Shown here one piece after another: positions 15,998-62,408 of a DNA stretch of 64,000 nucleotides. Below the pieces are notes generated by a model, which saw only the letters and a program-made list of their open reading frames with translations, did no database searches and was not told the origin of the DNA. The position numbers and the translations under genes are program-made. Position 1 is the first letter of the stretch. Every line of letters starts with the position of its first letter. The stretch covers positions 2,046,001 to 2,110,000 of the forward strand of contig NZ_CP083691.1 in assembly GCF_020097155.1 (NCBI RefSeq), in the 5' to 3' direction. The DNA is from Micrococcus porci. GTDB taxonomy: Bacteria; Actinomycetota; Actinomycetes; Actinomycetales; Micrococcaceae.

Positions 15998-16903
15998 TCA
16001 GAGGGCGTGGCGGGGACTGAATTCCACCTCCTGGACGGAAGGCAGGTGCATGTCCGTGGCCGGGAGGACGACGCGCGGCCGGTACGTGGTCCGAAGGTCC
16101 TCCACGAACGCCCTGGCCTCATCCACCTTCTGCGCGGCGAGCATCTCGTTGTACTGCTCATAGCGATCCATCACGCGCTGGGGGCTCCCCTCCATCACGG
16201 GACGTCCCTTGTCCAACCACAGAACCTTGTTGGACGAGTCGAGGATGGTCTTGTTGTCGTGGCTGACCAGGACGACGGCCCCGGCCTTGCGCTTGAGCTC
16301 CTGCATGCGCTCCTTGGCGCGGGCCCGGAACTGCGAGTCCCCCACGTTGAGCGCCTCGTCGATGACGAGCACCTCGGGATCACGGCTTGTGGCGATCGCA
16401 AATCGCAGCCGAGCACTCATGCCGGAGGAGTACGTCTCGATGGGCAGGTCGATGGCCTCCCCGAGACCCGTGCTGGCTGCGATCTCGGGCGTCTTGGCCA
16501 TCACTTCGTCCTTGGCCATTCCGAGCGCCAGGCATCCCAGCACGATGTTCTGACGGCCGGACATGGCGGGCACCAATGCGGCGTTGACACCGAGCATCAT
16601 GGGGGTGGCTGTGGCCAGCACACGGCCAGTGGAGGGGGCGAGCTTGCCCGCGATGATCTGAGACAGCGTCGACTTGCCCGAGCCGTTGCGGCCTACCAGC
16701 CCCAATGTGCGGCCCTGCTCCAGGCCGAGGGTCATCTCGTGCAATGCATGGACAGGTACCCGCGGCGGCTGGCGCAGCGCGCGGGCGAGCCCCCTCCGCC
16801 ACGCAGGGAGCGCCGCCACGCTGTCGGCGGCACTGGACGGCACCCGGTAGGTCATGGACACACGATCCAAGACGAGGGCGTAGTCGACGGTCGTGTCGGT
16901 CAT
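15998..16903 (-). CDS. Polysaccharide/teichuronic acid ABC exporter, ATPase (TagH/Wzt-like)
   Basis: A 301-aa ATP-binding subunit of an ABC-2 polysaccharide exporter. Walker A is GLVGRNGSGKST, the signature is TYSSGMSARLRFA, Walker B is VLVIDEALNVGD and the H-loop is LVSHDNKT. The MMLGVNAALVPAMSGRQNI segment typical of the Wzt/TagH/RfbE family is present. Only about 70 residues follow the nucleotide-binding domain, too few for the carbohydrate-binding domain of long Wzt proteins. The start overlaps the permease stop as ATGA. With the neighbouring wecB, wecC and glycosyltransferases it probably exports a teichuronic acid-like polymer. Confidence 0.88.
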   Translation of the reverse strand: MTDTTVDYALVLDRVSMTYRVPSSAADSVAALPAWRRGLARALRQPPRVPVHALHEMTLGLEQGRTLGLVGRNGSGKSTLSQIIAGKLAPSTGRVLATATPMMLGVNAALVPAMSGRQNIVLGCLALGMAKDEVMAKTPEIAASTGLGEAIDLPIETYSSGMSARLRFAIATSRDPEVLVIDEALNVGDSQFRARAKERMQELKRKAGAVVLVSHDNKTILDSSNKVLWLDKGRPVMEGSPQRVMDRYEQYNEMLAAQKVDEARAFVEDLRTTYRPRVVLPATDMHLPSVQEVEFSPRHAL

Positions 16904-17787
16904 CGGTTGAGGTCCTTCGCATAGCGCTCCTCGCCGAGCCAGAAGACGACGACGCCCACCACCAGGAGCCCGACCGACCACGCAGCGAGGATGCCCCACG
17001 CGACGGGCGACGGGGACCGGCCGTACAGCAGAAGGTCACGGGATATGTCGAGCACCTGGTACATCGGGTTCAACTGCAGCACGGCGAGCACGTTCGGCTG
17101 GGAGACGAACCGGTCGAAGGAGTAGAAGACCGCCGACCCGTACATCCAGAGGCGGATGCCGAAGCCCACGATCTGCGAGAGGTCGCGGACCCGGGACACT
17201 GCGCGGGCTAGGAGCAGCCCGACACCCGCGACCAGCATCAGCTGCAGTGCGACGACGACGGGGAACAGGAGCCACCACCACGTCACCTGTGCATGCGGAG
17301 GCAGGATGAGCACCGCCAGGAGCATGGCGGCCAAGGTGAAGCCGTAGGCGAGCACCTCGCGTGCCAACGCTGTCAGCGGCAGGACCGCACGGGGAAGCTG
17401 GAATGCGTCTGCCACGTTGTTCCTCGCCGTCAGGGAACGGGACAGGGCCGTCACCGCCCGGGTGGTGAACGTGAACATGAACACGCCCACGGTGAGGTAG
17501 CCGATGAAGTTCTCGACACCCAGCGAGGTCCTCAGAAGGACACCGAAGACCAGGAAGTACGTGGCCCCATTGAGGATCGGGTTCAGCAACAGCCACACGT
17601 TGCCCAACCGATGTCGCCGGTTCTGTGCCTGCACAGCCGCCACTGCGTCGTAGCGCACGTAGTGACGTAGCCGCCAGAGACGAGTCACGTAGTCGCCCAG
17701 GCTGGGACGTCGCCCGACGCGCTCCAGTCTGCTCTCGTCCACCCTCAGCTCGACGGGCGGCGATGTCGCCTCGACACGATCGGTCAC
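16900..17787 (-). CDS. Polysaccharide/teichuronic acid ABC exporter, permease (TagG/Wzm-like)
   Basis: A 295-aa ABC-2 type permease with a cytoplasmic N-terminal region of about 70 residues and about six transmembrane helices. Segments such as GNVWLLLNPILNGATYFLVFGVLL, ARNNVADAFQLPRAVLPLTALARE and RLWMYGSAVFYSFDRFV are typical of Wzm/TagG. GTG 17787 is chosen over longer frames because AGGAGG lies 7 nt upstream. A TATACT -10 element lies about 75 bp upstream. It is coupled to the ATPase gene and divergent from wecB, so polymer precursor synthesis and export share one intergenic region. Confidence 0.88.
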   Translation of the reverse strand: MTDRVEATSPPVELRVDESRLERVGRRPSLGDYVTRLWRLRHYVRYDAVAAVQAQNRRHRLGNVWLLLNPILNGATYFLVFGVLLRTSLGVENFIGYLTVGVFMFTFTTRAVTALSRSLTARNNVADAFQLPRAVLPLTALAREVLAYGFTLAAMLLAVLILPPHAQVTWWWLLFPVVVALQLMLVAGVGLLLARAVSRVRDLSQIVGFGIRLWMYGSAVFYSFDRFVSQPNVLAVLQLNPMYQVLDISRDLLLYGRSPSPVAWGILAAWSVGLLVVGVVVFWLGEERYAKDLNR

Positions 17788-17859
17788 GCGGGTCCCTCCT
17801 GCACGGGCTTGACGGTGGAGCCCGCACCATCGGCACGGACGTCCCCGATTCGGATCGCA

Positions 17860-17865
17860 AGTATA
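17860..17865 (-). promoter_or_regulatory. -10 element of the exporter operon
   Basis: TATACT on the minus strand, one base from the TATAAT consensus, 73 bp upstream of the permease GTG in the divergent gap. No clear -35. Confidence 0.5.
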
Positions 17866-17896
17866 CGAGGGCCCACCCGCTCCCGATGCGGTTCGA

Positions 17897-17902
17897 TAGG
17901 GT
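17897..17902 (+). promoter_or_regulatory. Possible -10 element of wecB
   Basis: TAGGGT, matching TANNNT, 52 bp upstream of the wecB ATG. It lies back-to-back with the exporter promoter. No -35 is recognised. Confidence 0.3.
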
Positions 17903-17953
17903 GAAGCGAGCCACGCGTCCACCGTGGCCAGCACCGACTCTGGAGCCGCGTCC

Positions 17954-19114
17954 ATGCCCCTGAAGATCATGCCCATCTACGGCACCCGCCCCGAGGCCAT
18001 CAAGATGGCACCGATCGTGAACGCCCTGCGCGCCGACGATCGGTTCGAGTGCTTCACGACGGTCACCGGCCAGCACCGCGAGATGCTCGACCAGGTCAAC
18101 GCGATCTTCGGCATCACGCCGGACGCGGACCTTGACATCATGCGCCCGAACCAGACGCTCAACGGGATCATGAGCGTCATGCTGGAGGGACTCGACGAAC
18201 TCCTCGTCCGTGAGCGTCCCGACGCTGTCGTGGTCCAGGGCGACACAACGACGTCGACCGCCGGCGCGATCGCAGCCTTCTACCGCGGCATCCCGGTGGT
18301 CCACGCCGAGGCCGGGCTGCGCTCCGGCGACCTGTTCTCCCCGTTCCCGGAGGAGGCGAACCGCAAGATCACCTCCCAGATCGCCTCGCTGCATCTGGCA
18401 CCGACCTCGGTCTCGCGCGCCAACCTCGAGCGCGAGGCCATCGACTCCGCGGCGATCACCGTCACCGGGAACACCGTCATCGATGCGCTGCTCGAGACGG
18501 TCGCCCAGCAGCTGCCGTTCACCGACCCTCGGCTCGCTGAGCTCGCCGAGCGCCGTGCGGCCGATCCGCAGAGCCGCGTCCTCCTGGTCACCACCCATCG
18601 ACGGGAGAACCAGGGTGAGGCCATGCGCGGAGTGGGTCGGGCACTGGCCCGGCTGGCCCAGAGCCACCCGAACTTGACGATCGTGCTCCCGGCCCACCGC
18701 AACCCGGTCGTGCGCGAGGCCGTCCTGCCGACGCTGGAGGGGATCGACTCCGTGATCGTGACCGAGCCCCTCCCCTACGGAGAGTTCACCCGGATGATGG
18801 ATCTCGCCGATGTCGTGCTGACCGACTCGGGTGGCGTGCAGGAGGAGGCGCCATCGCTGGGCAAGCCTGTGCTTGTCATGCGGGACAACACGGAGCGTCC
18901 GGAGGCGGTGCACGCAGGCACCGTCCGCCTCATTGGCACCGACGAGGAGCGTCTGGTCGAGGAGACGTCTCTCCTGTTGACGGACCCCGACGCCTATGCC
19001 GCCATGGCCCACGCCGTGAACCCCTACGGCGATGGCCGTGCGGGGCTGCGAACGGTGGCCGCGATCGCCCAGCTCCTGGGAGTGGGAGATCGCCTGGACG
19101 AGTTCGGAGCCTGA
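17954..19114 (+). CDS. wecB: UDP-N-acetylglucosamine 2-epimerase (non-hydrolysing)
   Basis: WecB interconverts UDP-GlcNAc and UDP-ManNAc. The 386-aa GT-B-fold protein carries the family fingerprint: YGTRPEAIKMAPIV at the N-terminus, QGDTTTSTAGA, HAEAGLRSGD, PFPEEANRKIT and TTHRREN. These match the catalytic Asp95, Glu117, Glu131 and His213 of E. coli WecB, and TDSGGVQEEAPSLGKPVLVMR binds UDP. ATG 17954 has GGAG 8 nt upstream; a GTG ten codons earlier lacks such a site. Together with wecC it supplies UDP-ManNAcA. A strong hairpin follows the gene. Confidence 0.93.
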   Translation: MPLKIMPIYGTRPEAIKMAPIVNALRADDRFECFTTVTGQHREMLDQVNAIFGITPDADLDIMRPNQTLNGIMSVMLEGLDELLVRERPDAVVVQGDTTTSTAGAIAAFYRGIPVVHAEAGLRSGDLFSPFPEEANRKITSQIASLHLAPTSVSRANLEREAIDSAAITVTGNTVIDALLETVAQQLPFTDPRLAELAERRAADPQSRVLLVTTHRRENQGEAMRGVGRALARLAQSHPNLTIVLPAHRNPVVREAVLPTLEGIDSVIVTEPLPYGEFTRMMDLADVVLTDSGGVQEEAPSLGKPVLVMRDNTERPEAVHAGTVRLIGTDEERLVEETSLLLTDPDAYAAMAHAVNPYGDGRAGLRTVAAIAQLLGVGDRLDEFGA

Positions 19115-19130
19115 GCCCCTCTCCGCTCAT

Positions 19131-19167
19131 CACACCTGCCTCCGGTCGTCGACCGGGGGCAGGTGTG
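19131..19167 (+). terminator. wecB terminator
   Basis: A 17-bp inverted repeat (19131-19147 with 19151-19167) broken only by a T-G wobble, with loop GTC, 16 bp after the wecB stop and followed by TCTCTG. Confidence 0.7.
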
Positions 19168-19212
19168 TCTCTGCCCCGCTCGCGACTGAAGAGATGCAAG
19201 TCTGAGACCATG

Positions 19213-19231
19213 GTCACGTCCGCCTCGTGAC
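19213..19231. promoter_or_regulatory. GTCACG-N7-CGTGAC inverted repeat
   Basis: GTCACG (19213-19218) and CGTGAC (19226-19231), separated by 7 bp, lie 48 bp upstream of the secreted beta-helix protein gene. A further GTGAC half-site follows near 19253. It may be a regulator site or a leader hairpin. Confidence 0.3.
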
Positions 19232-19278
19232 GTGGCCGGACCGGCGCGGGGGCGTGACCCCGCATTTGAGAGGACCCC

Positions 19279-20025
19279 ATGAAGAAGATCACCCGCTCCC
19301 TCGCCTCCGTGGCCGCAGCGCTCGGCCTCGCCGGCGCCGGGCTCGTGGCCGCCCCCGCCGCTCAGGCAGCCGACCTGACATGCTCGGGCATCATCTCCGG
19401 CCGCACCATGACCGGGGACATCACCGTCCCCGGGGGCGCCACCTGCACCATCCGTTCCAGCACGGTCACGGCGGACTACGTGTACGTCGCTCCCAATGCC
19501 ACGCTGATCACGGAGAACTCGTCTGTCAGCGGGTTCATCTCCGTGGAGCGTGGCGCTACCCTGCGTGCAACGGAGGGCTCCCTCGGCGACGTGCTCGCGG
19601 ACAGCCAGAAGCTCATCCGCATCCACGGCACGTCGGTGGGAAGCCTGAACGTCTCGCAGGGCGGCACGGTCACCACCACCCGTATGCGGGTGCGCGACGA
19701 TGCCTACTTCCACGGCATGGGCGGCACCGTCTCGCATTCCTGGGGCCGGTTCTCCAATTACGTCAGCCAGTACGGGTCCGCCCGCAACCGCTTCATGATC
19801 CGCTCCTCGGTCGTGGGTGCGGACGTGTCTGTGCAGCAGTCCGGTCACGTTCTCGTCGGCAGGAACACGGTCTACGGGAACATCTTCGTCCACGACAACC
19901 GGGGAACGATCTACATCGAGGGCAACCGGGCGGACCTTTACCTGTCGTGTGACGGGAACCGCTACCAGCCCACGGGTGGAAACAACACCGCTTGGGACAA
20001 GTGGGGCCAGTGCGCCGCCCTGTGA
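19279..20025 (+). CDS. Secreted beta-helix-like protein of unknown function
   Basis: A 248-aa exported protein. Residues 1-30 form a Sec signal peptide (MKKITRSLAS, then an Ala/Leu/Gly-rich core) with a likely cut at AQA-A. The mature part is a series of short beta-rung segments such as TVTADYVYVAPNATLI, SSVSGFISVERGATL and SSVVGADVSVQQSGHVLV, with regular G-N-T-I/V turns, like a right-handed beta-helix. Four cysteines (35, 56, 224, 245) lie in pairs at the two ends and could cap the helix by disulphides. There is no sorting signal, lipobox or catalytic motif. GAGAGG precedes ATG 19279. Its position between wecB and the polymer glycosyltransferases suggests a cell-wall role; this is inference. 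Confidence 0.75.
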   Translation: MKKITRSLASVAAALGLAGAGLVAAPAAQAADLTCSGIISGRTMTGDITVPGGATCTIRSSTVTADYVYVAPNATLITENSSVSGFISVERGATLRATEGSLGDVLADSQKLIRIHGTSVGSLNVSQGGTVTTTRMRVRDDAYFHGMGGTVSHSWGRFSNYVSQYGSARNRFMIRSSVVGADVSVQQSGHVLVGRNTVYGNIFVHDNRGTIYIEGNRADLYLSCDGNRYQPTGGNNTAWDKWGQCAAL

Positions 20026-20038
20026 CCCGTTGACGGGT

Positions 20039-20073
20039 CAGGGGCCCGCGGTCGTCTCGACCGCGGGCCCCTG
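20039..20073. terminator. Bidirectional terminator
   Basis: A perfect 16-bp inverted repeat (20039-20054 with 20058-20073) closing a TCT loop, between the convergent beta-helix gene and giant glycosyltransferase gene. Confidence 0.7.
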
Positions 20074-20086
20074 CATTCCAAAGCCG

Positions 20087-23000
20087 TCACTCGCCGGCGA
20101 CCAGCTCCGACCAGCGGTCGAGAGAGCGACCGCCGTCGAACCGAGCCGACGTCTCCCGCCGCGCGGTGTCGGCGGCGGCACGGAACACCTCCGGTTCGCG
20201 GAGACCAAGGATGCGACGGGCCATGGACTCGAGCGTGGGGCTGAGCCACTCGGCGGGGAAAATGCGGTCGGCGCCCGGCCAGGCGAGCACGGCCGGCACC
20301 GCGCCGTTTTGCGCGCCGTCCACCGAGGTGAAGTGGAACGACTCGAAGTCGGAGACGGACAGGCCGATGCCGATGGACGAGTACCAGCGGTCAAGTTCGG
20401 CGCGGTCGGTGCTGAACCCGTCCAGGTGGACGGCGCCCTGGAGCGCGGGGTCCTGTGCGATCCGCTCCCGGATCGTCCCGTAGTAGGCCATTTCCTCCTC
20501 ACGGGCGGCCATCCACGGGTAGTCCTCGGGCTGCTTCCCCTTCACGCGCAGGGAATATCGGGGATCCTCGCGGCGGAGCATCGCAAGGAGGTCGAGGGCG
20601 CGGTCGAAGCGCTTGCCTCGCGGCACGATCCCCACGAGCCCGAGCACGAAGCGGGAGTCGGGGTCCCGCTTGAGACCCGCTCCGGGCAGGACGATGTTGG
20701 GGATCACTTCGGAGGGACGGGCCGCGACGCCGCGGTAACGGCGGGCGGAATCACGGATGTGCGGTGCAACGAAGATGAACCGGTCCACGGCGGGCAGGTT
20801 CATTCGAGACCAGTTGTCCCGGAAGAGCTCCTGCGAATGGACACGCACGTACAGCCGCTGGCCCTCACGCTTGTGCTTGGAGTACCAGACGGCGTTGCCC
20901 AGGCCCCACTCGCACAGGACGACGTCGGCCCAGTCGACGAGCTCGCGGCTGAGCTCATCGTCATGATCCTGGTGGGAAGCCCACTGGTCGAGGCGGACCT
21001 CGTGGCCGTCGGACCGGAATCGGTTGATCAGCTCGCCGGCGAACTTGAGGTCGTGGCCGGCGACGACCACGCGCAGGGGCCGTTCCATGCGGTCGAGCGC
21101 CTCAGGCGTCAGTGCGACGGCGGCCGGGCGCTGCTTCGCGCCCAGGTCCTCCACCGACTCGAGCAGGCCACGGCGCACGGTGACGACGCCGTCGTCACCC
21201 CCACCCCACCTGAGCACCAGGGAGGCGCCGGACGGCACGGGGGCGCCGCCTACGACCGCCAGAGGGGTCGCCAGGTCGGTCACCGGTGTCGTGTCCAGTA
21301 CGGCGGCGCTGTAACCCGAGTCAAGGAGCACGTTGGCCAGGTCCTCGTGTACCACGCGGTCCAGCCGCGCTCCGTCCCACTCCCACGCCAGGTGTGCCGG
21401 GTCCAGACTCGCGCTCCCGGCGGATACCTCGATCCCGGCGGCGGAGAGCCGCTCCCGCACCGTCTCCGACATCTCGTCGGCCACCACCCTGTCGACCGGG
21501 CGTGTCTGGGCCAGGAGCCCGTCCCAGTCGGCCCGGTCCGCGGGGCCTGTCAGCACCACAGTCGTGCCGGGCGTCGGATCGGGGCTGACGGCCAGACCCA
21601 GCCGACGCAGCAGGACGAGGAGCCGGTCGGACAGCGTGTGGCTCCGGCGAACGAGCCGGCGGAGGTTCCATCCCTGCACATTGCGCAGACCGGGATCCGA
21701 GAGCAACGTGGACATCGCGCGCTCGGCAACCTCTCGGCGGCCGATGGTCGGGACCAGTCCGCGGAACATGTGGTTCACACCGGCCGACGGACCGGAGGCG
21801 ACCACGCCGCCGGCGCAGCTGATCTCCATGACCCGGCGGGAGAACATCGTCTCCGACGCGGTCACCGAGTTCACGTTCACGTGCAGGGGGTACCGGCGGT
21901 AGGCCTTGACCATCTCCGAGTACGGCAGGCCGCCCTCGACGAAGGGCTGCAGCTCCTCCGGGAACCGGTACGGGGAGTCCGGCAGGTCCGCCTGACGGTC
22001 GTAGATCGTCACGCCAAACGGGCGTGCGACGTGGAGGAGCCCCCGCAGCACCTCGGATCGGTCTCTGTACCGGTCCCCGTAGTACGAACCGGCGTACATG
22101 ACCGGGCGGTCGGCCACGGCCGGACCGTCAGTCACCGGGTGGTGGAGGGAGGGCTGCGCGAAGAACGCCATGCTCCCCACGGTCTGACGGGAGCGGTCCA
22201 CCCGCGCCTGATACCCCTGGATCGAGCGGTTGTCCGTGGTGAGCACCAGATCGAAGAGGCGCGCGTTCTCCACGAACCGGTTGAAGTGGACCGGGTCTTC
22301 CTTGTTCCAGAAGACGGTGGGGACGCCGGCGGCCCGGCAGTCCTCCAGGAGGGCCCGAAGGTCGGCGGACTCCTCGTCGGAGTAGTGGCCGACGCCGCGG
22401 GTCCACGCACCGTCGTTGCCGGACCAGGCGGACTCGACGAACACGGCGTCGAGGCGCTCCTCCGCAAGCTGACGCCGCCAGCCCTGGCCCGCACGCTGGA
22501 GGGGGACTGTCTGGACCTGCTCCGCGAGGCCGGAGGTCGTGAAGGTATCCGCGATGACGCCGAGTCGCACGGTGGACAGCGGGCGCGATCCGCCCTCGGC
22601 TCCAGTCGAGGGGACGGCCGCCAGGATTCCGGATCCCAGGTGGGCTCCGAGCACGTCCCAGCGCCGCTCCCGCAGCGCCCACGCACGCCCGCTACGGCCG
22701 AGGTCGAGGCGCCGCTCGGGATCGTCCAGGAGGCCCGCGATGGCCTCCGCCAGGCCGTGACGGTCACCCGCCGGAAACACCACAGCCCCACCGCACTCCT
22801 CGGCGAGGCTGCGCAGCACCGGCAGGTCCGAGAGCACCACGGGGACGCCTGCGGCGAGCGCCTCCAGCGGCTTCAGGGGGCTCACGAGACGCGTGACGCG
22901 GGTGGCGGTGCGCGGGCATGCGACGACGTCCACCTCGCTCATGAGCGCGGGGATGAGGTCGGCATCGATGCGCCCGAGCAGGTGCACGGGGAGTGACGTG

Positions 23001-24526
23001 TCGCGCTCCGCGGCGATCTCCTTGAGACGCGGCAGGACGGGGCCGTCGCCGGCTACGACGAGTTGGAAGTCGTCGCGCTCCTCCGCCAGTTGGAGACATG
23101 CCTCCAGCAGGTCCTCGAGGCCCTCGTAGGACACCAGCGAACCCAGGTAGCCGATCACAGCACGATCGGGGTCCAGCCCGAGGCGCCGGTGCAACTCGCC
23201 GACCGCGGGCAGCGGCTGGAACTGCTCGGGGTCCACGCCGTTCGGGGTGACGGTCATCCGGTCGGGGTCCACGCCCCGGCCCCGCAGCTCGTCGCGCATC
23301 TCAGCGGTGAGCACGAACACGTGGTCGGCCTCGACCATGACCAGGTCCTCAAGACGGCCGGCCAGCTCGCCTCGCTCCTGGAGGCCCTCCTCCCCCGGCT
23401 CCATGCCGTACTCCCAGAAACCCCGCACCTCGTATGTGAAGGGCAGCCCCGACAGGCGGGCGGCGATCAGGGCGGGCAACGCCGTGATGTGGTTCGACGC
23501 GGCGTGCACGTGGGCGGGTCGGTTGCGCGCGATCACCTGGAGGTACGAGTCCACCGCGCTCTCCAGGTAGGCGGCGAGCGCCTGGTTGCGCAACGACGGC
23601 CCGAACGAGTAGACGTGCTCGATGCCGTCCACGAGCTCCGGGTAGGACTGCTTCTTGCGTGCGGCGCGGGTGACCTTGGCGTCCCACGGGAAGCCCGGAC
23701 GGGCGGCGACGACGACGTCGTGGCCCGCGTCGCGGAGGCCGGCCACGATGCCGCGCGTGCGGATCGCGTAGCCGTTGGACTGGTAGGGGTGCACGCCGTG
23801 GGCGCAGTAGAGGATCCGGCCGGCCTCGGGGCGGAGGGCGGTCCCGACCGCCCGGGCCGGGACGACCGGCGGGTGGTCGAGCAGTCGGGCCTGCTCCCGC
23901 ACGTTCCGCGCGAGCTTGGCCTGGGCCGGGGTGAACTGCCCCACCAGCTCGGGGTGCTCCTCCAGGGCCGCGGCGGGGGCACGGAGCTGGCCGTCCCGGT
24001 AGAGCGCGGCCACCAGGGCGTGGAGGGCGGACGCGCTCGGCCGCTCCGCGAGCGCGGCGCGGAGGGCGGCGAGCGTGCGCTCGCCGGTCGGCTCCGCGGC
24101 GGGGGCGGGCGTGGCGACGGCGGCGTCGGCCCGCTCGGGGGCGGGGGCCGCGGCCCGCGTCCTGGCGAGAGGGCGGCGGAGCGTCTCCGACCACCGCCCG
24201 GGGGTGCGCAGCAGGCGCTTCACGCGCGCCGCCGCGGCGTGGGCGGGGGCTCGGCGGGCGTGGTAGATCCAGCGGCGGATCTGCCTGACACGGCCGGTGT
24301 TGAGCACGCGCAGCCGCCACGGCACCTCGGCCACGTGATCGGACGGCTCGGGGGTCCCCGGACCCGCGACGTCGGCGGCCTCCAGGTCCGTGCCGCCGTC
24401 GGACGCGTCGTGGGTAGCGTCGGCGCGGGACCGCACGCCCCGGATCAGCTCCTCCGCCCCGGCGTATCGGACGCGGACTCCCACGTCACGGCTTGTCCAC
24501 AGGGCCATTTCGTCGATCTGACGCAC
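20087..24526 (-). CDS. Giant three-module glycosyltransferase
   Basis: A single 1479-aa frame with three glycosyltransferase-like modules. Residues 1-235 are a basic and Ala-rich N-terminal region. Residues 237-625 are a GT4-type GT-B module (AHGVHPYQSNGYAIRTRGI; TPNGVDPEQF; GYLGSLVSYEGLEDLL; VSPLKPLEALAAGVPVV). Residues 653-985 resemble CgeB-type transferases (FWNKEDPVHFNRFVENARLF; EISCAGGVVASGP). Residues 986-1150 look like a degenerate transferase linker. Residues 1151-1475 form another GT4-like module (GIVPRGKRFDRALDLL; SDFESFHFTSVDGAQNGAVP). No signal peptide or membrane helix is seen. The GTG start at 24526 has TAGGAG 8 nt upstream. It probably assembles several linkages of the teichuronic acid-type polymer; acceptors and donors are not known. 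Confidence 0.82.
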   Translation of the reverse strand: MRQIDEMALWTSRDVGVRVRYAGAEELIRGVRSRADATHDASDGGTDLEAADVAGPGTPEPSDHVAEVPWRLRVLNTGRVRQIRRWIYHARRAPAHAAAARVKRLLRTPGRWSETLRRPLARTRAAAPAPERADAAVATPAPAAEPTGERTLAALRAALAERPSASALHALVAALYRDGQLRAPAAALEEHPELVGQFTPAQAKLARNVREQARLLDHPPVVPARAVGTALRPEAGRILYCAHGVHPYQSNGYAIRTRGIVAGLRDAGHDVVVAARPGFPWDAKVTRAARKKQSYPELVDGIEHVYSFGPSLRNQALAAYLESAVDSYLQVIARNRPAHVHAASNHITALPALIAARLSGLPFTYEVRGFWEYGMEPGEEGLQERGELAGRLEDLVMVEADHVFVLTAEMRDELRGRGVDPDRMTVTPNGVDPEQFQPLPAVGELHRRLGLDPDRAVIGYLGSLVSYEGLEDLLEACLQLAEERDDFQLVVAGDGPVLPRLKEIAAERDTSLPVHLLGRIDADLIPALMSEVDVVACPRTATRVTRLVSPLKPLEALAAGVPVVLSDLPVLRSLAEECGGAVVFPAGDRHGLAEAIAGLLDDPERRLDLGRSGRAWALRERRWDVLGAHLGSGILAAVPSTGAEGGSRPLSTVRLGVIADTFTTSGLAEQVQTVPLQRAGQGWRRQLAEERLDAVFVESAWSGNDGAWTRGVGHYSDEESADLRALLEDCRAAGVPTVFWNKEDPVHFNRFVENARLFDLVLTTDNRSIQGYQARVDRSRQTVGSMAFFAQPSLHHPVTDGPAVADRPVMYAGSYYGDRYRDRSEVLRGLLHVARPFGVTIYDRQADLPDSPYRFPEELQPFVEGGLPYSEMVKAYRRYPLHVNVNSVTASETMFSRRVMEISCAGGVVASGPSAGVNHMFRGLVPTIGRREVAERAMSTLLSDPGLRNVQGWNLRRLVRRSHTLSDRLLVLLRRLGLAVSPDPTPGTTVVLTGPADRADWDGLLAQTRPVDRVVADEMSETVRERLSAAGIEVSAGSASLDPAHLAWEWDGARLDRVVHEDLANVLLDSGYSAAVLDTTPVTDLATPLAVVGGAPVPSGASLVLRWGGGDDGVVTVRRGLLESVEDLGAKQRPAAVALTPEALDRMERPLRVVVAGHDLKFAGELINRFRSDGHEVRLDQWASHQDHDDELSRELVDWADVVLCEWGLGNAVWYSKHKREGQRLYVRVHSQELFRDNWSRMNLPAVDRFIFVAPHIRDSARRYRGVAARPSEVIPNIVLPGAGLKRDPDSRFVLGLVGIVPRGKRFDRALDLLAMLRREDPRYSLRVKGKQPEDYPWMAAREEEMAYYGTIRERIAQDPALQGAVHLDGFSTDRAELDRWYSSIGIGLSVSDFESFHFTSVDGAQNGAVPAVLAWPGADRIFPAEWLSPTLESMARRILGLREPEVFRAAADTARRETSARFDGGRSLDRWSELVAGE

Positions 24527-24572
24527 GCAGCGATCTCCTAGAACGGTGGGGCCGAGGCGGCCGGGGTCATGC

Positions 24573-24608
24573 GCCGGCCCGGCATGCTCGTGTGCGCGCC
24601 GGGCCGGC
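24573..24608 (-). terminator. Hairpin between wecC and the giant glycosyltransferase
   Basis: A perfect 10-bp stem (24573-24582 with 24599-24608) and a 16-nt loop, downstream of wecC on the minus strand. The long loop and intercistronic position suggest a partial terminator. Confidence 0.4.
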
Positions 24609-24636
24609 TGGGTGGATCAGTGGGGGGCGAGGCCCG

Positions 24637-25893
24637 TCAGCGCCACTGCCCGCGCGTGTCGATCACGCGCTTGCCCGCGGTCTGCTCGCCGAGGCCGGCG
24701 AACGCGTCGTGGTCCACGAGCAGCAGGACGACGTCGGCCTCGGCCACGGCCTGCTCGGCCGGGACGAAGCGCACGTTCTCCTTGCCCTGCAGCTTCGCGG
24801 GCAGCTCATCCACGTGCGGCTCGGACACGAGCACGGTGGAGCCGGAGAACTCGTCCGCGAGCTGGGCGGCGATGTTCAGCGCCGGCGACTCGCGCAGGTC
24901 GTCGATGTTCGGCTTAAAGGCGAGGCCGAGGGCAGCGACGACCGCCGGGCGGCCCTCCTTCTGCTGCACGTCGAACGCGGCGGCTTTGGCCCGCTCGATG
25001 ACCCACTGCGGCTTGGCGTCGTTGATCTCGCGGGCGGCGCGGATGATGCGCGCGGTCTGCGGGGCGGCGTCCACGATGAACCACGGGTCCACCGCGATGC
25101 AGTGCCCGCCGACGCCGGGGCCCGGCTGAAGGATGTTCACGCGGGGGTGGTGGTTGGCGAGCCCGATGAGCTCCCAGACGTCGATCCCCTGCTCGGCGCA
25201 GATCAGGGACAGCTCGTTGGCGAACGCGATGTTCACGTCGCGGAAGGAGTTCTCCACGAGCTTGGCCATCTCCGCGGTGCGGCAGTCGGTCAGGAGGATC
25301 TCGCCCTCGCAGAAGGAGCGGTACAGGTCCCGGGCGCGCTCGGCGGCGGCCGGGGTGGAGCCGCCCACGATGCGGTCGTTGGTGACGAGCTCCACCATCA
25401 CGCGGCCGGGGAGCACGCGCTCGGGGCAGTGCACGAAGTCCAGCGGGGCGTCCTTCAGGTCCGGACGAACCTCGCGGATCACGTCGGCCATGTGGTCGGT
25501 GGCGCCGGGGGGCGAGGTGGACTCGAGGATCACGAGCTCGTCTCCGGTGAGCTGCGGGGCCAGCCCGCGCGCGGCGGCCTCGATGTAGGACAGGTCCGGG
25601 GCGTGGTCGCCCTGGAAGGGGGTGGGCACCGCGACGATGTAGGCGTCGGCCTTGGGGGTCTCCAGGGAGGCGTCCAGGCGGCCGGCGGCCACGTTGCGCT
25701 CGACGAAGTCGGCGAGGTCGGGCTCCACGAAGGGGACCTTGCCGGCGTTGACCGCGTCCACGGTCCGCGGGCTGACGTCCACGCCATGGACGGTCAGCCC
25801 GTTCTCCGCCAGGATCGCGGCGGTCGGCAGGCCGATGTAGCCCAGGCCGATGACGGCGACGGTCTTGATCTGCGTCACGTTCTGTATTCCCAT
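24637..25893 (-). CDS. wecC: UDP-N-acetyl-D-mannosamine dehydrogenase
   Basis: WecC oxidises UDP-ManNAc to UDP-N-acetylmannosaminuronic acid with two NAD+. The 418-aa protein has the N-terminal NAD-binding VAVIGLGYIGLPTAAILAE, the middle dehydrogenase domain (ESTSPPGATDHM, CPERVLPGR, ENSFRDVNIAFANEL) and catalytic Cys in GPGVGGHCIAVDPWF. The C-terminal UDP-binding domain contains GLAFKPNIDDLRESPAL. GlcNAc/ManNAc-type features (LPTA, CPERVLPG, HCIAVDPWF) separate it from UDP-glucose dehydrogenase. ATG 25893 is the listed start; a GTG five codons in (VTQIKTV) is plausible. A very long frame upstream is a shadow of the next glycosyltransferase. With wecB it provides the ManNAcA donor. Confidence 0.92.
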   Translation of the reverse strand: MGIQNVTQIKTVAVIGLGYIGLPTAAILAENGLTVHGVDVSPRTVDAVNAGKVPFVEPDLADFVERNVAAGRLDASLETPKADAYIVAVPTPFQGDHAPDLSYIEAAARGLAPQLTGDELVILESTSPPGATDHMADVIREVRPDLKDAPLDFVHCPERVLPGRVMVELVTNDRIVGGSTPAAAERARDLYRSFCEGEILLTDCRTAEMAKLVENSFRDVNIAFANELSLICAEQGIDVWELIGLANHHPRVNILQPGPGVGGHCIAVDPWFIVDAAPQTARIIRAAREINDAKPQWVIERAKAAAFDVQQKEGRPAVVAALGLAFKPNIDDLRESPALNIAAQLADEFSGSTVLVSEPHVDELPAKLQGKENVRFVPAEQAVAEADVVLLLVDHDAFAGLGEQTAGKRVIDTRGQWR

Positions 25894-25943
25894 CCTCGCG
25901 TTCACGTCCCGGCATCGCAGCGCGGGCGGTGTCCCCATCATAG

Positions 25944-27746
25944 TCAGCCGCCCCGGACGGCACCCCGGTCGGCGACGTCGACGACGGCGCCCAGGCGCGC
26001 GTAGAGCTCTGTGTAGCGGCGCGCGTTCGCCGCCCAGGTGCGCTCGGCGAGCACCCAGGCGCGGGCCCGGTCGCCCATCGCCGCGGCGGCGTTGGGGTCC
26101 GCAAGCAACGCCTCGACGGCTTCGGCCCACGCCTCTGGATCGGAGGCCGGGACCGTCGCCCCGGTCTCGCCCTCGGCCACCAGCTCCTGCAGCGCGGGCA
26201 GCCGGGAGAGTAGCACGGGCCGGGCCGACGCCATGGCCTCCAGCGGCTTCATGGGGGTCACGTCGCGGGTCACGGAGGTGTCCCGGCGGGGCACGCAGAA
26301 CACGTCGAGTGCCTGGTGGCACAGGGGCGCCCGCGCGCGCTCCACCCGGCCGAGCAGGTCCACCCGGTCGCGCACCCCCAACTGCTCCGCGAGGGCGGCC
26401 AGGCCGGGCAGGGCGGTGCCGTCGCCGGCCACGAGCAGGCGCAGCCGCGGGCGGCGGTCCGCCAGGAGCGCGACGACCCGCACGAGGTCGTCCAGCCCCT
26501 CGTAGGGGACGACGGAGCTGACCGTGCCGATGTACTCGGCGTCCGGGGCCAGCCCCAGAGCCCGACGCGCGGCGGCGCGCTCCCCCGGCGCGTCCAGGAA
26601 GGCCCCGCCCACCGCGTTCGGGCTGAGCACCACGTCCTCCGGGTCCACGCCGTCCTCGGCCAGGCGGGCGCGCATGGTCTCGGCGAGGGTCACGACGCCG
26701 TCGGCCCGCGCCGCCGCCTCGGCCTCCCGGGTGCGGAAGGCTCGGTACCGCTCCGACATCAGCGCCTGCGGGCCCCGCGTGGACGCCCACGTGTCGGCGA
26801 GCTGTCCGCGCACCTCGTACACCCACGGGATGCCCACGGCCTCGGCCACGGCCGCGGTCACGGCCGCGTTCACCCAGTGGGTGGTGGTGTGGAGCACCGC
26901 CGGCCGCTCGCGCAGGACGAGCCGCAGCAGGGCGGCGGCGTGCTGGTCCAGTCGGGCGCCGAAGCCCGGCGCGAGGGCCGCCGGCAGCAGGCGGTGGTAG
27001 GCGACCCCGTCCACGCGGTCCACGTCCTCCGCGGCCAGCACGCCGGTCTGGACGGGCCACCCCAGGCGCGTCACCGCCGCCACGGACCAGCCCGCGTCCC
27101 GGACCGCCGTCAGCAGGCTGTGGGAGCGCTGGACGTAGCCGGAGCCGGTGTGGGGCAGGGAGTTGGTGAGCACGAACAGGACGTGCCCGGGGCGGGGCTC
27201 GTAGTCGGCGGCGAGGGCGCGGTCCTCCGCGGAGAGGCAGACGGGCCGCCCCAGGAGGGAGTCGCGCTCGGCCGCCAGCCGCGCCCGCAGCCGGCCCTGG
27301 CGACCGTGCGGGGAGAGGACGAGGACGGCTCCGGTCATGTCCCCGCGGTGCCAGCGCAGGCGCGCCCGCGCCTCCGCGGCGCCGGGGGCGTCCGCCGGGA
27401 CGTCGGCCAGGAGGCGCTCGGCGTCCTCGTCGCGGCCGGCGGCCAGGAGCACCTCGGCCCGACGCGCACGCTCGCGGGGCCCGGGGGCGTCGTCGGCGTC
27501 GACGAGGGCGGCCTGCAGCTGCTCCTCGCGACCGAGCATGGCCAGCCCGATGCCGCGCGGCACCGCTACGCGCGCGGGGACGTCCGCCAGCACGCCGCCC
27601 ACGCGCGCACGGAGGCCCGTGGGCAGCCTCCGTGAGACCTGCAGGGCGAGGACCACGGGGTCGTCGAGCAGGTGGTCCGCGACGGTCCGGCCGGTGAGGG
27701 CGGCGTTGGCGGCGAGTCGTCGGACGCGGGGGGCGCGGGGGCTCAT
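25944..27746 (-). CDS. GT4 family glycosyltransferase
   Basis: A 600-aa glycosyltransferase with an Ala/Arg-rich helical N-terminal extension (about residues 1-180) and a GT-B GT4 module (about 187-590). Diagnostic segments are SLPHTGSGYVQRSHSLL at the acceptor side, GTVSSVVPYEGLDDLVRVV, LLVAGDGTALPGL and TPMKPLEAMASARPVLLSRLP on the donor side. These line up with the first module of the 1479-aa protein, including the YEVRG segment, so the two are paralogous. The ATG at 27746 overlaps the previous gene as ATGA. It probably adds one sugar of the surface polymer. Confidence 0.82.
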   Translation of the reverse strand: MSPRAPRVRRLAANAALTGRTVADHLLDDPVVLALQVSRRLPTGLRARVGGVLADVPARVAVPRGIGLAMLGREEQLQAALVDADDAPGPRERARRAEVLLAAGRDEDAERLLADVPADAPGAAEARARLRWHRGDMTGAVLVLSPHGRQGRLRARLAAERDSLLGRPVCLSAEDRALAADYEPRPGHVLFVLTNSLPHTGSGYVQRSHSLLTAVRDAGWSVAAVTRLGWPVQTGVLAAEDVDRVDGVAYHRLLPAALAPGFGARLDQHAAALLRLVLRERPAVLHTTTHWVNAAVTAAVAEAVGIPWVYEVRGQLADTWASTRGPQALMSERYRAFRTREAEAAARADGVVTLAETMRARLAEDGVDPEDVVLSPNAVGGAFLDAPGERAAARRALGLAPDAEYIGTVSSVVPYEGLDDLVRVVALLADRRPRLRLLVAGDGTALPGLAALAEQLGVRDRVDLLGRVERARAPLCHQALDVFCVPRRDTSVTRDVTPMKPLEAMASARPVLLSRLPALQELVAEGETGATVPASDPEAWAEAVEALLADPNAAAAMGDRARAWVLAERTWAANARRYTELYARLGAVVDVADRGAVRGG

Positions 27747-28963
27747 GCGGTGGTCTCCGTCCGGGTGCGGCGGGAAGGGCGGGCGGCCACTCGGCGCAGG
27801 AGCGCCTCGTAGCGGCGTGCCGTCGTGGGCAGGTCGCCGTGCGCGGCGGCCCAGCGGCGGCCGGCGTCCCCGACGCGGGTGCGGGCCGGGTCGTCGGCGA
27901 GGGCGTCGAGGTGGGCGACGAGGTCCTCGACCCCAGGCCCGACGACGTCGGCGGCCCCGGAGCGCTCCAGCATGAGGGCGGCCTCACCGGAGAGCTGGCC
28001 GGTCACGTGCCGGCCCACGGCGAGGGCCTCGTAGGTCTTGGAGGGGATGGTGTGGCGGAAGCTGGGCCAGTCCGGCCGCAGGCACACCACCAGGGTGTCC
28101 GCCCACGCGTACTGCTCCGTCAGCGCGGCACCGGACACCGGCGGCACGAACTCCACCCCGGCCTCCAGCTCCGCGTTCAGGGCCTCGAGCGCGGCCCGGC
28201 GGGTGCCGTCGCCGACGATCCGCACGTGCACGCCCGGGTGTGTGGCACGCTGCCGGGCGGCGGCCTCCACGAGCCGCTCGAGCCCCTGGCTCTCCCCCAG
28301 GTTGCCCAGGTACAGCACGTGCAGCTCGCCGGCGGTCCGGTCCCGCGGCGGGGCCACGGGGACGCGCTCGAGGTCCACGCCGTTGGCGAGCACCTCGACG
28401 CGGCGCATGCCGCGGCCGCGCAGCGTGGCCGCGAAGCCCTCAGTCACCGTGACGACGAGGTCGGCGGCGCGCTGGCCGCCCGTGACCACCCGCTCCATCA
28501 GGGTGCCGAGCAGGCCCGGGTGCACGCCCGCCTCCCGGGCGAGGTCCGGCCAGGCGTCCCGCATCTCTACGACCAGCGGGCGGCGGCGCAGCACGGCCAG
28601 GGCCCGCCCGGCCACGACCACCGGCAGCGCCGGCAGGGTGGCCACCACCACGTCCGGGCGCGGCAGGACGAGGCCGCGCGGCACCGCCAGCACCGCGTGC
28701 ACGGCGGCGGCGGCGAACCGGCCGTTGCGCCCGTCGCCCGAGCCCAGCAGCCGCGGCGTGGGACGCAGGCGCTCGCCGTGCTCGCCGACGCGGGTGCGCA
28801 GCCCGCCGGGGACCAGCACGTCGACCTCCCAGCCGGCCGCGCGCAGGGCCTGCACCACGGCGGCCCAGCGCCGGGCGGGCGGGGTGCGCTCCGGACGGTA
28901 CGAGTGGGTCACCAGCAGCAGGCGCGGGGCACGTCCGCCGGCGCGGGTGCGGCGCTCACCCAC
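27743..28963 (-). CDS. GT4 family glycosyltransferase
   Basis: A 406-aa GT4 glycosyltransferase of the WbuB/WcaI-like type. It opens with LLLVTHSYRPERTPPARRWAAVVQAL, has the LVVEMRDAWPDLA segment and LANGVDLERVPV, and in the donor half LYLGNLGESQGLERLVEAA, RIVGDGTRRAAL and PSKTYEALAVGRHVTGQLSG. The start is GTG at 28963, overlapping the LCP gene by 8 bp; the end overlaps the following glycosyltransferase by 4 bp. The unit LCP-GT-GT-wecC is therefore probably one transcript. The substrate is not identifiable from the sequence. Confidence 0.84.
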   Translation of the reverse strand: MGERRTRAGGRAPRLLLVTHSYRPERTPPARRWAAVVQALRAAGWEVDVLVPGGLRTRVGEHGERLRPTPRLLGSGDGRNGRFAAAAVHAVLAVPRGLVLPRPDVVVATLPALPVVVAGRALAVLRRRPLVVEMRDAWPDLAREAGVHPGLLGTLMERVVTGGQRAADLVVTVTEGFAATLRGRGMRRVEVLANGVDLERVPVAPPRDRTAGELHVLYLGNLGESQGLERLVEAAARQRATHPGVHVRIVGDGTRRAALEALNAELEAGVEFVPPVSGAALTEQYAWADTLVVCLRPDWPSFRHTIPSKTYEALAVGRHVTGQLSGEAALMLERSGAADVVGPGVEDLVAHLDALADDPARTRVGDAGRRWAAAHGDLPTTARRYEALLRRVAARPSRRTRTETTA

Positions 28964-30194
28964 CGCAGGGGTCCTCGCCCAGCAGGGTCCCCTCGCCGGC
29001 CGGCGGCGCCGCGGCCAGCTCGGTCAGCAGGGGCGTTGCCCCCGGCGCGGCGGCCAGGGCCGGCTGGACGTCCTCCCCCGCCGCGAGCGCCTCGGGGTCG
29101 TGCGCGCGGAGGTAGGACTCGACGTCGTCGCGCTGAAGGGCGTCCCGCAGGGCGGCCATCCTGTCCGCGTCGAGGAGCACGACGTCCTGGCCGTCCGGAC
29201 TCGTGCCGTAGCCGGCGCGGGGCACGGTGAACATGGTCAGCGCGGAGCGGTCGACGCCGCGCAGCTGCCAGGCCAGCGAGGCCAGGGTGGCGGAGTCCAG
29301 GCCCTCGTCCACCGTCAGGTGGTCGGAGAGGCCGGCCACCACATCCACGGCGCGGGGCGGGTTGAGGACCACGGCCGGGTCCAGGAACGCGGCGACGGCG
29401 CCGCGCACGAACCGCTGCTGGTTCTGCACCCGCATCACGTCCCCCTCGGGGAAGGCGTGGCGCTCGCGCACGTAGCGCAGGGCCGCGGTGTCCTTCAGCT
29501 CGATCCGCCCGCGCGGGTAGAAGGAGGGGTTCTTCTGGCCCGAGGAGAACGCGTGCGGGTTGCACACCTCGACGCCGCCCAGGGCGGTGGTCATGCCGCG
29601 GAAGCCCTGGAAGTCCAGTTCCGCGAGGTGGTGGACGGGCACCCCGAGCAGCTTGTCCAGCATGGCCGCCGTCAGCTCCGGGCCGCCGAGCTCGTAGGCG
29701 GCGTTGGCCTTGCGCTGCCCGCGGCCGGGGATCTCCACCAGGGAGTCACGCAGCACGGAGATCACGTAGACGTGCCGGCGGTCGGCCGGGACGTGGACGA
29801 GCATCATGGTGTCCGAGCGCTGGCTGGTCTCCGCCGAGTCCTCCGCGGCGCGGGAGTCCGAGCCCAGCACCAGGAAGTTCACCGGGCCGTCGTTCCCCGG
29901 GTCCGCGAAGGCGGCGGCCGACACCGTCTGCCGGTGTCCGTCGAAGGTGCGGGCGAGGAGCAGGCCGTAGGCGCCGAGGGCGACGACCAGCAGCAGCGCC
30001 AGCACCCCCAGCACCGCGAGGAACCGGCGCAGCGGGCGGCGGCGTCGGGCCCGGCCGCCTCCGCTCCGGCGGGTGGCGGGCGGGGTCGACGTCGGGGGCG
30101 CGGCGGGGGCGGGACCCCGCAGGCCCTCCAGGGGGTCGGCCGCGCCTCCCGGGCGCTCCGGAGGGATCCACGGCTGCTGCGGGGGCTGGGTCAC
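28956..30194 (-). CDS. LytR-CpsA-Psr (LCP) family ligase
   Basis: LCP proteins transfer undecaprenyl-linked teichoic, teichuronic or capsular polymers onto peptidoglycan at the outer membrane face. This 412-aa protein has a Pro-rich cytoplasmic tail, one transmembrane helix (FLAVLGVLALLLVVALGAYGL) and the LCP domain: NFLVLGSDSRA, RSDTMMLVHV, SVLRDSLVEIPG, KANAAYELGG and RYVRERHAFPEGDVMRVQNQQRFV. The conserved Arg/Asp residues for pyrophosphate and Mg binding are present. GTG 30194 has AGGAG 7 nt upstream. As first gene of the polymer operon it is the likely attachment enzyme for the exported polymer. Confidence 0.88.
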   Translation of the reverse strand: MTQPPQQPWIPPERPGGAADPLEGLRGPAPAAPPTSTPPATRRSGGGRARRRRPLRRFLAVLGVLALLLVVALGAYGLLLARTFDGHRQTVSAAAFADPGNDGPVNFLVLGSDSRAAEDSAETSQRSDTMMLVHVPADRRHVYVISVLRDSLVEIPGRGQRKANAAYELGGPELTAAMLDKLLGVPVHHLAELDFQGFRGMTTALGGVEVCNPHAFSSGQKNPSFYPRGRIELKDTAALRYVRERHAFPEGDVMRVQNQQRFVRGAVAAFLDPAVVLNPPRAVDVVAGLSDHLTVDEGLDSATLASLAWQLRGVDRSALTMFTVPRAGYGTSPDGQDVVLLDADRMAALRDALQRDDVESYLRAHDPEALAAGEDVQPALAAAPGATPLLTELAAAPPAGEGTLLGEDPCGG

Positions 30195-40570: not shown

Positions 40571-40731
40571 GGGCCGGGGCTCCTCAGGGCAGGGGTGCCG
40601 TCGGCGCGGCGGCACGGCGGCGAGGGGACCCTGCCATGCTAGGCCACCTCCCCGGGAGGGGCCCGGTCGGGCAGCGGCCGACGACCCGTCCCGGCCCCGT
40701 CCCGGACGGCGGCCTCCCCCCGGCCACCCCG

Positions 40732-40737
40732 TACCCT
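40732..40737 (+). promoter_or_regulatory. Possible -10 element of the DUF3515 gene
   Basis: TACCCT ends 7 nt before the ATG at 40745, the spacing of leaderless actinobacterial genes. A GGAGGG lies in between but too close to the ATG to be a good ribosome site. Confidence 0.35.
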
Positions 40738-40744
40738 GGAGGGC

Positions 40745-60082: not shown

Positions 60083-60192
60083 GTCAGTGCGTCTCCTCGT
60101 GTAGGTCGCTGCGAGGGGCCGCGTCAGCCGCGGAGGAGGCACCGGGCTCCGCCCGCCGTCGCCGCCCACGGTGGTCGCCCCACGGCTTGGGC

Positions 60193-62268: not shown

Positions 62269-62408
62269 GGTCGTGGCGCTCCCCCTCGATGCGGACGGCG
62301 TACCGCCCCATGTCGATCCGATGTTCCCGTTCACCCTGCCACGGATGCCCCCGGCCGGTGGAGTGACGCGGAGCGCCTCAGCGGACGTCGGGCCCGAGCC
62401 CCCTGCCA

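What the first reader, a model, noticed from the sequence alone, without database searches (positions are those of the whole stretch)
15998..30194. Candidate complete teichuronic acid assembly locus
The locus combines an ABC-2 exporter pair, wecB, wecC, three glycosyltransferase genes and an LCP ligase, with galU close by. M. luteus wall teichuronic acid is known to consist of glucose and N-acetylmannosaminuronic acid; WecB plus WecC make UDP-ManNAcA and GalU makes UDP-glucose. So the sugar donors, transferases, export and attachment steps can all be assigned here. The linking of this locus to that polymer is inference from gene content.
Basis: partly seen in the sequence, partly recalled or inferred. 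Interest (0 to 1): 0.7.

Follow-up and report, generated by a model that had tools for sequence, protein, structure and literature searches.

The report
Micrococcus wall-polymer assembly gene cluster
A block of genes in a Micrococcus species (not M. luteus itself) very probably builds, exports and anchors an acidic sugar polymer of the cell wall; M. luteus carries the matching block, which gives gene candidates for its long-studied teichuronic acid, but the exact polymer made here cannot be read from the genes.

Summary
15998-30194 encodes an ABC-2 exporter pair, WecB, WecC, three glycosyltransferase (GT) genes and an LCP ligase, with galU 2.6 kb away. The genome's only WecB-type epimerase and only dehydrogenase passing as WecC are here.

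The organism is not M. luteus. M. luteus NCTC 2665 carries the orthologous locus, with its only WecB and WecC: the strongest candidate for the classical teichuronic acid genes. "Complete" is too strong: the WecA-like initiator lies elsewhere, no enzyme can be named as the beta-ManNAcA transferase, and the 1479-aa three-domain GT has no counterpart of that architecture in the M. luteus locus.

New: a core LCP-GT3-GT2-ABC pair-wecC recurs across the family; wecC and GT2 co-occur in 74 of 149 genomes, one alone in 8. In 5 of 75 wecC neighbourhoods CDP-glycerol glycerophosphotransferase genes lie in the same stretch (directly next to wecC in L152), though 0 of 11 Micrococcus genomes have them. So wecB/wecC may serve a shared ManNAcA linkage unit rather than a Glc-ManNAcA chain. 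The genes predict ABC export, unlike the published transporter-free model.

The parts
15998..16903 (-). ABC-2 exporter ATPase (TagH/TarH/Wzt type), 301 aa
   Evidence: Pfam ABC_tran 6.6e-18 (longer frame); NCBIfam best hits galactan Wzt and TagH, below their equivalog cut-offs; PDB best hits TarH 6jbh 4.5e-45, RfbE type, TagH
16900..17787 (-). ABC-2 exporter permease (Wzm/TagG type), 295 aa, 4-bp overlap with the ATPase
   Evidence: Pfam ABC2_membrane 8.1e-10; NCBIfam galactan Wzm 3.9e-13, below cut-off
17954..19114 (+). wecB/mnaA: non-hydrolysing UDP-GlcNAc 2-epimerase, 386 aa
   Evidence: TIGR00236 454 bits against cut-off 210; only Epimerase_2 match in the genome
19279..20025 (+). 248-aa protein with a signal-peptide-like start; probably not part of the module
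   Evidence: No Pfam or NCBIfam family; 0 of 75 family neighbourhoods
20087..24526 (-). 1479-aa protein with three glycosyltransferase domains: GT4 (about 236-630), CgeB-like GT-B (about 651-990), GT4-like GT-B (about 1095-1479)
24637..25893 (-). wecC: UDP-ManNAc dehydrogenase, about 418 aa (start uncertain)
   Evidence: NF008286 570 bits against cut-off 459
25944..27746 (-). GT2: GT4-type glycosyltransferase, 600 aa, domain in residues about 188-585
   Evidence: Pfam Glycos_transf_1 1.2e-30; co-occurs with wecC in 74 of 149 family genomes
27743..28963 (-). GT3: GT4-type glycosyltransferase, 406 aa
   Evidence: Pfam Glyco_transf_4 1.3e-13; present in 57 of 75 wecC neighbourhoods
28956..30194 (-). 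LCP (LytR-CpsA-Psr) ligase, 412 aa
   Evidence: Pfam LytR_cpsA_psr 2.9e-36; one of three LCP matches in the genome
32817..33743 (-). galU, UDP-glucose pyrophosphorylase, housekeeping neighbour
   Evidence: TIGR01099 331 bits against 326.8; only match over cut-off in the genome

Best explanation
The locus encodes the cytoplasmic assembly, export and wall attachment of a ManNAcA-containing wall glycopolymer of the ABC-transporter-dependent kind. Proposed order: a WecA-like enzyme encoded elsewhere puts GlcNAc-1-phosphate on undecaprenyl phosphate; WecB and WecC make UDP-ManNAcA; GT3 and GT2 add the first ManNAcA and/or hexose residues; the three-domain GT extends the chain in the cytoplasm; the ABC-2 pair exports the lipid-linked polymer; the LCP protein joins it to peptidoglycan. 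Shown here: gene identities by family, single wecB and wecC-type genes, no Wzx-type flippase of family PF01943 found in the genome, conservation and linkage of the core. Inferred: every catalytic step, the order, the sugar that alternates with ManNAcA, and whether ManNAcA is in the main chain, the linker or both. In M. luteus NCTC 2665 the orthologous locus is the best candidate for the genes of the classical teichuronic acid.
For: WecB and WecC pass equivalog cut-offs here and in G005. Only Epimerase_2 in this genome and in G005, M. luteus NCTC 2665 by its length of 2,501,097, where it lies in the orthologous locus. WecC in 11 of 11 genus genomes, 74-84% identity in the other ten. Across 149 family genomes wecC and GT2 co-occur in 74, wecC only 6, GT2 only 2, neither 67; 66 of the 74 pairs lie within 10 kb (not corrected for phylogeny). 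Of 75 wecC neighbourhoods, GT2 in 59, GT3 57, ABC ATPase 39, LCP 39, permease 38, wecB 33, against 0 of 20 random stretches for all of these but the ATPase (2 of 20). ATPase nearest to TarH, RfbE and TagH. No PF01943 match in the genome, 13 of 14 control genomes ring. A WecA-like and an MraY enzyme are present.
Against: No gene can be assigned as the beta-ManNAcA transferase: GT2, GT3 and the first domain of the big GT are GT4-type, its last domain has a GT4-like fold (GT4 being a retaining family, recalled), while a beta-linked ManNAcA from UDP-alpha-ManNAcA needs inversion (recalled); no GT26 WecG was found. The purified M. luteus synthetase has 52.5 and 54 kDa subunits and was modelled with no transporter (PMC3005890); predicted masses of GT-type and unassigned proteins in the M. 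luteus locus are 26.0, 42.0 (GT3), 58.4, 63.1, 63.9 (GT2), 75.4, 80.4 and 91.8 kDa, the nearest being 58.4. 6 of 80 wecC genomes lack GT2 at the cut-off, five of them from one genus, in four of which wecC lies between ffh and ftsY. Fewer than half of the 75 neighbourhoods (33) show GT2, GT3, wecC and the ABC pair together. No wall chemistry of this strain is known to me.
Confidence: 0.8

Rival explanations
1. Exactly the M. luteus polymer: the locus makes [->4)-beta-ManNAcA-(1->6)-alpha-Glc-(1->]n teichuronic acid in this species.
For: UDP-ManNAcA and UDP-Glc supply are present; core genes orthologous to M. luteus NCTC 2665; the second uronic acid gene set found in some Micrococcus loci is absent from this locus, so ManNAcA is the only uronic sugar that locus genes are seen to make. 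Proteins related to the C-terminal domain of the big GT (44-48% identity) are in the M. luteus locus.
Against: Not M. luteus. The extending GT set differs: a three-domain GT here and, domain by domain, in M. lylae (G006, L184), against proteins of 256, 731, 521, 710, 861 and 598 aa in M. luteus, with no CgeB-like domain match there. M. luteus C01 has GlcNAc in place of Glc, with glutamate on ManNAcA (PMC9530943), so the partner sugar varies even within the species.
Confidence: 0.35
2. The conserved core (wecB, wecC, GT3, GT2) makes a ManNAcA-containing linkage unit on GlcNAc-PP-undecaprenol; the main chain is set by the variable genes (the three-domain GT here, glycerophosphotransferases in some relatives) and need not contain ManNAcA.
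For: In L152 the core is followed on the same strand by three genes with CDP-glycerol glycerophosphotransferase domains; such domains occur in 5 of 75 neighbourhoods, with core identities there like those elsewhere except L150, which is lower, and in 0 of 11 Micrococcus genomes. The variable part changes between species while GT3, GT2 and wecC stay. A (ManNAcA)2-GlcNAc linker in M. luteus is recalled from the older biochemistry; PMC3005890 states an oligosaccharide linker with a reducing GlcNAc.
Against: Only 5 of 75, and direct adjacency was checked by Pfam in L152 only. Teichuronic and teichoic parts can be one hybrid polymer, as in Streptomyces griseus (PMC13274773). In M. luteus ManNAcA is in the main chain. 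No test here separates linker from chain.
Confidence: 0.25
3. A capsular or loosely bound exopolysaccharide rather than a wall-anchored polymer.
For: ABC-2 and LCP proteins can serve capsules (established knowledge); a ManNAcA polymer is found in M. luteus C01 biofilm matrix (PMC9530943).
Against: In C01 the same polymer is described as the cell wall polysaccharide; the M. luteus polymer is covalently on peptidoglycan (PMC3005890); the LCP gene stands first in the gene order next to GT3 and GT2.
Confidence: 0.08

Closest known systems
Micrococcus luteus teichuronic acid (TUA) and its synthetase TUAS (PMC3005890)
   Same: Orthologous core locus in the M. luteus NCTC 2665 genome, with its only WecB and WecC; UDP-ManNAcA and UDP-Glc donors
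   Different: No gene was assigned to TUAS in the parts of that paper read; its 52.5/54 kDa subunits match no predicted protein clearly; its model has no transporter, whereas the locus has an ABC exporter; this window is another species with another extending GT
TagGH/TarGH and mycobacterial Wzm-Wzt (galactan) ABC exporters
   Same: ATPase and permease families, size, adjacency; best solved-structure relatives of the ATPase
   Different: Scores below the equivalog cut-offs; substrate unproven
Bacillus subtilis tua operon
   Same: Product class (teichuronic acid)
   Different: The B. subtilis system uses a TuaB flippase and TuaE polymerase (recalled); no PF01943 match in this genome; the locus dehydrogenase is ManNAc-type, not TuaD-type
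Streptomyces griseus utr cluster (PMC13274773)
   Same: Actinomycetota teichuronic-acid-like polymer with a ManNAc-type uronic acid and a locus variable between species
   Different: utr makes a ManNAc3NAcA-GalNAc chain on wall teichoic acid; a similar gene set (dehydrogenase, acyltransferase, aminotransferase, oxidoreductase) is in the M. luteus locus but not in the window

Membership tests
ABC-transporter-dependent wall glycopolymer locus (TagGH/Wzm-Wzt kind) | Exporter ATPase and permease of the glycopolymer type | tested here: met
   Best family and PDB relatives are glycopolymer exporters, though below the equivalog cut-offs of the single models
ABC-transporter-dependent wall glycopolymer locus (TagGH/Wzm-Wzt kind) | Undecaprenyl-P GlcNAc-1-P transferase (WecA/TagO) available | tested here: met
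   One WecA-like and one MraY enzyme in the genome, outside the locus; the WecA-like one scores 94.5 against a 326-bit cut-off, so its exact activity is inferred
ABC-transporter-dependent wall glycopolymer locus (TagGH/Wzm-Wzt kind) | LCP ligase | tested here: met
ABC-transporter-dependent wall glycopolymer locus (TagGH/Wzm-Wzt kind) | No Wzx flippase | tested here: met
   PF01943: no match in own genome, 13 of 14 controls ring; other flippase families not searched
M. luteus-type teichuronic acid (Glc-ManNAcA) | UDP-ManNAcA made by WecB and WecC | tested here: met
   Both genes pass equivalog cut-offs; activity not tested
M. luteus-type teichuronic acid (Glc-ManNAcA) | Orthologous locus in the strain of known chemistry | tested here: met
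   G005, length of NCTC 2665; that ATCC 4698 of the TUAS work is the same strain is recalled
M. luteus-type teichuronic acid (Glc-ManNAcA) | Same extending glycosyltransferases as M. luteus | tested here: not met
   Three-domain GT in the window; separate genes in G005, related only to its first and last domains
M. luteus-type teichuronic acid (Glc-ManNAcA) | Glucose and ManNAcA in the wall polymer of this strain | not testable with these tools
   needs wall chemistry
B. subtilis tua-type teichuronic acid system | Wzx-type flippase | tested here: not met
WecG/TagA (GT26) ManNAc(A) linkage enzyme | PF03808 domain | tested here: not met
   No match in own genome, 7 of 14 controls ring

The most novel reading that the evidence does not exclude
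The Micrococcaceae share an ABC-exported wall-polymer system whose constant part (wecB, wecC, GT3, GT2, ABC pair, LCP) makes and handles a ManNAcA-containing linkage unit, an acidic counterpart of the ManNAc-GlcNAc linkage unit of Bacillota teichoic acids made without a GT26 enzyme, onto which species build different main chains: teichuronic acid in M. luteus, a glycerophosphotransferase-made chain in some relatives, and an unknown chain made by a three-domain glycosyltransferase in this species and M. lylae.
Probability: 0.25. Interest if true: 0.7.

Novelty: new variant of a known kind. Interest (0 to 1): 0.5.

Why it matters
M. luteus teichuronic acid was studied biochemically for decades, yet the 2010 TUAS paper names no gene in the parts read and proposes synthesis without a transporter. 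This locus gives a short list of genes, predicts export by an ABC transporter and attachment by an LCP protein, and makes both claims testable by gene deletion in a laboratory species. The family-wide core offers a way to learn how one linkage and export core may serve different wall polymers.

Tried and rejected

Limits of counts: the 149 genomes were drawn by the tool from a larger group and include 8 of the 11 Micrococcus genomes; genomes without a match were listed only in part, and 'neither 67' is by subtraction. 11 of the 75 neighbourhoods are shorter than 20 kb because of contig ends; three genomes (G011, G074, G125) give two neighbourhoods each, so 72 non-Micrococcus genomes, and the two of G125 overlap. 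Counts depend on the cut-offs stated. The Fisher p value (1.6e-32) ignores phylogeny. The random control used one stretch in each of 20 genomes. The label printed says gap under 500, but the script used -200 to 900 bases. In one search the best-scoring window or M. luteus protein gave each gene its name, so GT labels among distant relatives are approximate. The glycerophosphotransferase model was built from three domains of L152, so L152 matches by construction.
Full report
WHAT IS THERE. Reading from 30194 down on the minus strand: LCP ligase (30194-28956), GT3 (28963-27743), GT2 (27746-25944), wecC (about 25893-24637) and a 1479-aa glycosyltransferase (24526-20087); LCP/GT3 and GT3/GT2 overlap by a few bases. 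On the plus strand lie wecB (17954-19114) and a secreted-looking 248-aa protein gene (19279-20025); then, minus again and divergent from wecB, the ABC-2 permease (17787-16900) and ATPase (16903-15998). Flanks are mutM, rnc and galU on one side and an MFS gene, ftsY, amtB and ffh on the other. The exporter-wecB-big GT part has lower GC (0.67-0.70 between 16 and 21 kb) than its flanks (mostly 0.72-0.79).

GENOME CONTEXT. The genome (2,648,900 bases, one contig) has one Epimerase_2; two clear NDP-sugar dehydrogenases, wecC and a UDP-glucose-dehydrogenase-like gene in the window at about 49.05-50.5 kb, with a third match below cut-off; three LCP matches; one WecA-like and one MraY enzyme; one galU over cut-off; and no match to GT26 WecG, PF01943 flippase or CDP-glycerol glycerophosphotransferase. 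As far as these families show, UDP-ManNAcA can be made only through this locus.

SPECIES. G005 has exactly the length printed for M. luteus NCTC 2665 (2,501,097; passages of PMC3674793 and PMC2928768). Window DNA matches its locus region at 76.7% over the longest block (6,921 columns), 79-84% in the ftsY, MFS and wecC stretches, and down to 65% elsewhere. So the window is another Micrococcus species, which I did not name.

THE LOCUS IN MICROCOCCUS. WecC, a wecB of this locus, GT2 and the ABC pair were found in 11 of 11 genomes; LCP and GT3 in 10 of 11, the remaining contig (G010) ending before them. The run mutM to ftsY is contiguous in 8 of 11. Three genomes (G001, G007, G008) have a second Epimerase_2 elsewhere; the window genome and G005 do not. 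In G005 the wecC (586 bits) and wecB (453 bits) of the locus pass their cut-offs, and its three other dehydrogenases fail as WecC (195, 215 and 168 bits against 459). Between the constant genes the content varies. The window has the three-domain GT, and M. lylae has matches to all three of its domains in a row (34-45% identity). M. luteus NCTC 2665 has instead proteins of 256, 731, 521, 710, 861 and 598 aa; the 731, 521 and 861 aa ones have GT domains over Pfam cut-offs, the 598 aa one only a weak match but 48% identity to the C domain of the big GT. It also has a second dehydrogenase, an acyltransferase, a DegT aminotransferase and an oxidoreductase, a set like that for 2,3-diacetamido uronic acids, by family resemblance below the equivalog cut-offs. 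The aminotransferase frame of NCTC 2665 carries one in-frame stop at codon 121, whereas G002, G003 and G007 have uninterrupted 367-aa frames. Whether that stop explains why only ManNAcA is known from that strain is speculation.

FAMILY-WIDE TEST. Among 149 family genomes, wecC (E up to 1e-120) is in 80 and GT2 (E up to 1e-80) in 76: both 74, wecC only 6, GT2 only 2, neither 67. Of the 74, 66 have the two within 10 kb, 64 of these on one strand. In 75 stretches of up to 20 kb around wecC outside Micrococcus: GT2 59, GT3 57, CgeB-like domain 50, LCP 39, ATPase 39, permease 38, wecB 33. GT2, GT3 and wecC occur together in 54, with the ABC pair in 33, and with LCP too in 24; GT3 and GT2 adjoin on one strand in 49 of 54. 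In 20 random stretches of 20 of these genomes none of these was found except an ATPase match in 2 (25-29% identity). A frequent order is LCP-GT3-GT2-permease-ATPase-CgeB-like GT-wecC. Five of the six wecC-only genomes belong to one genus; in four of them wecC lies between ffh and ftsY. Yaniella halotolerans is a carrier by name (L047).

A RESULT AGAINST THE SIMPLE READING. In L152 the core is followed on the same strand by three genes with CDP-glycerol glycerophosphotransferase domains. A model built from those three domains finds such genes in 5 of 75 neighbourhoods (L135, L138, L145, L150, L152), 0 of 20 controls and none of the 13 relatives' loci examined beside the window; Pfam finds none in 11 Micrococcus genomes. 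Core proteins in these five have identities like those elsewhere, L150 being lowest. The same core thus stands beside teichoic-type chain genes in some relatives. Either ManNAcA is part of a shared linkage unit, or the polymers are hybrids like the teichuronic-teichoic conjugate of Streptomyces griseus (PMC13274773).

LITERATURE. PMC3005890 (three of its four parts read) gives the M. luteus repeat, a 440-kDa synthetase with 54 and 52.5 kDa subunits, an oligosaccharide-phosphate linker with reducing GlcNAc, no gene assignment in those parts, and a model needing no transporter. PMC9530943 (section 26 and passages) gives, for M. luteus C01, a wall polymer of 4-linked beta-ManNAcA carrying glutamate and 6-linked alpha-GlcNAc. 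PMC13274773: passages and sections 8 and 9 read. PMC7831098: passages only. PMC13189705: a term search found none of the terms asked. The (ManNAcA)2-GlcNAc linker, the retaining nature of GT4 and the B. subtilis TuaB/TuaE roles are recalled.

VERDICT. The locus is real and conserved, and is very probably a ManNAcA wall-glycopolymer assembly, export and attachment locus. Its M. luteus ortholog is the best candidate for the teichuronic acid genes. The claim that this species makes Glc-ManNAcA teichuronic acid from a complete set is not established.

Noticed in passing
window about 49.05-50.5 kb, +: A UDP-glucose-dehydrogenase-like gene (NDP-sugar dehydrogenase family 402 bits) with no sugar-polymer neighbours recognised; G005 has a similar one.
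   Followed up: partly
L061:15044-16147 (M. luteus NCTC 2665 by length): DegT-type sugar aminotransferase frame with one in-frame stop at codon 121, in a set resembling 2,3-diacetamido uronic acid genes.
   Followed up: partly
window 16-21 kb: GC content of 0.67-0.70 against mostly 0.72-0.79 in the flanks, as might be left by exchange of polymer genes.
   Followed up: no
window 51739-55310, -: Two adjacent dynamin-like GTPase genes (Pfam Dynamin_N 1.1e-8 and 5.4e-12).
   Followed up: no
window 59171-62523, -: SUKH-1 (SMI1/KNR4) and Tdi1-C-like domains side by side, resembling an immunity-gene array; the GC content drops towards the window end.
   Followed up: no
window 39446-41065, -: A second LCP gene, about 9 kb from the locus; LCP genes also lie some kilobases from galU in G003, G006 and G009.
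   Followed up: no
window 19279-20025, +: Secreted-looking 248-aa protein without a recognised family inside the locus, not matched in 75 family neighbourhoods.
   Followed up: partly
L119, L120, L127, L130: In one unnamed genus wecC sits between ffh and ftsY without the other core genes nearby.
   Followed up: no
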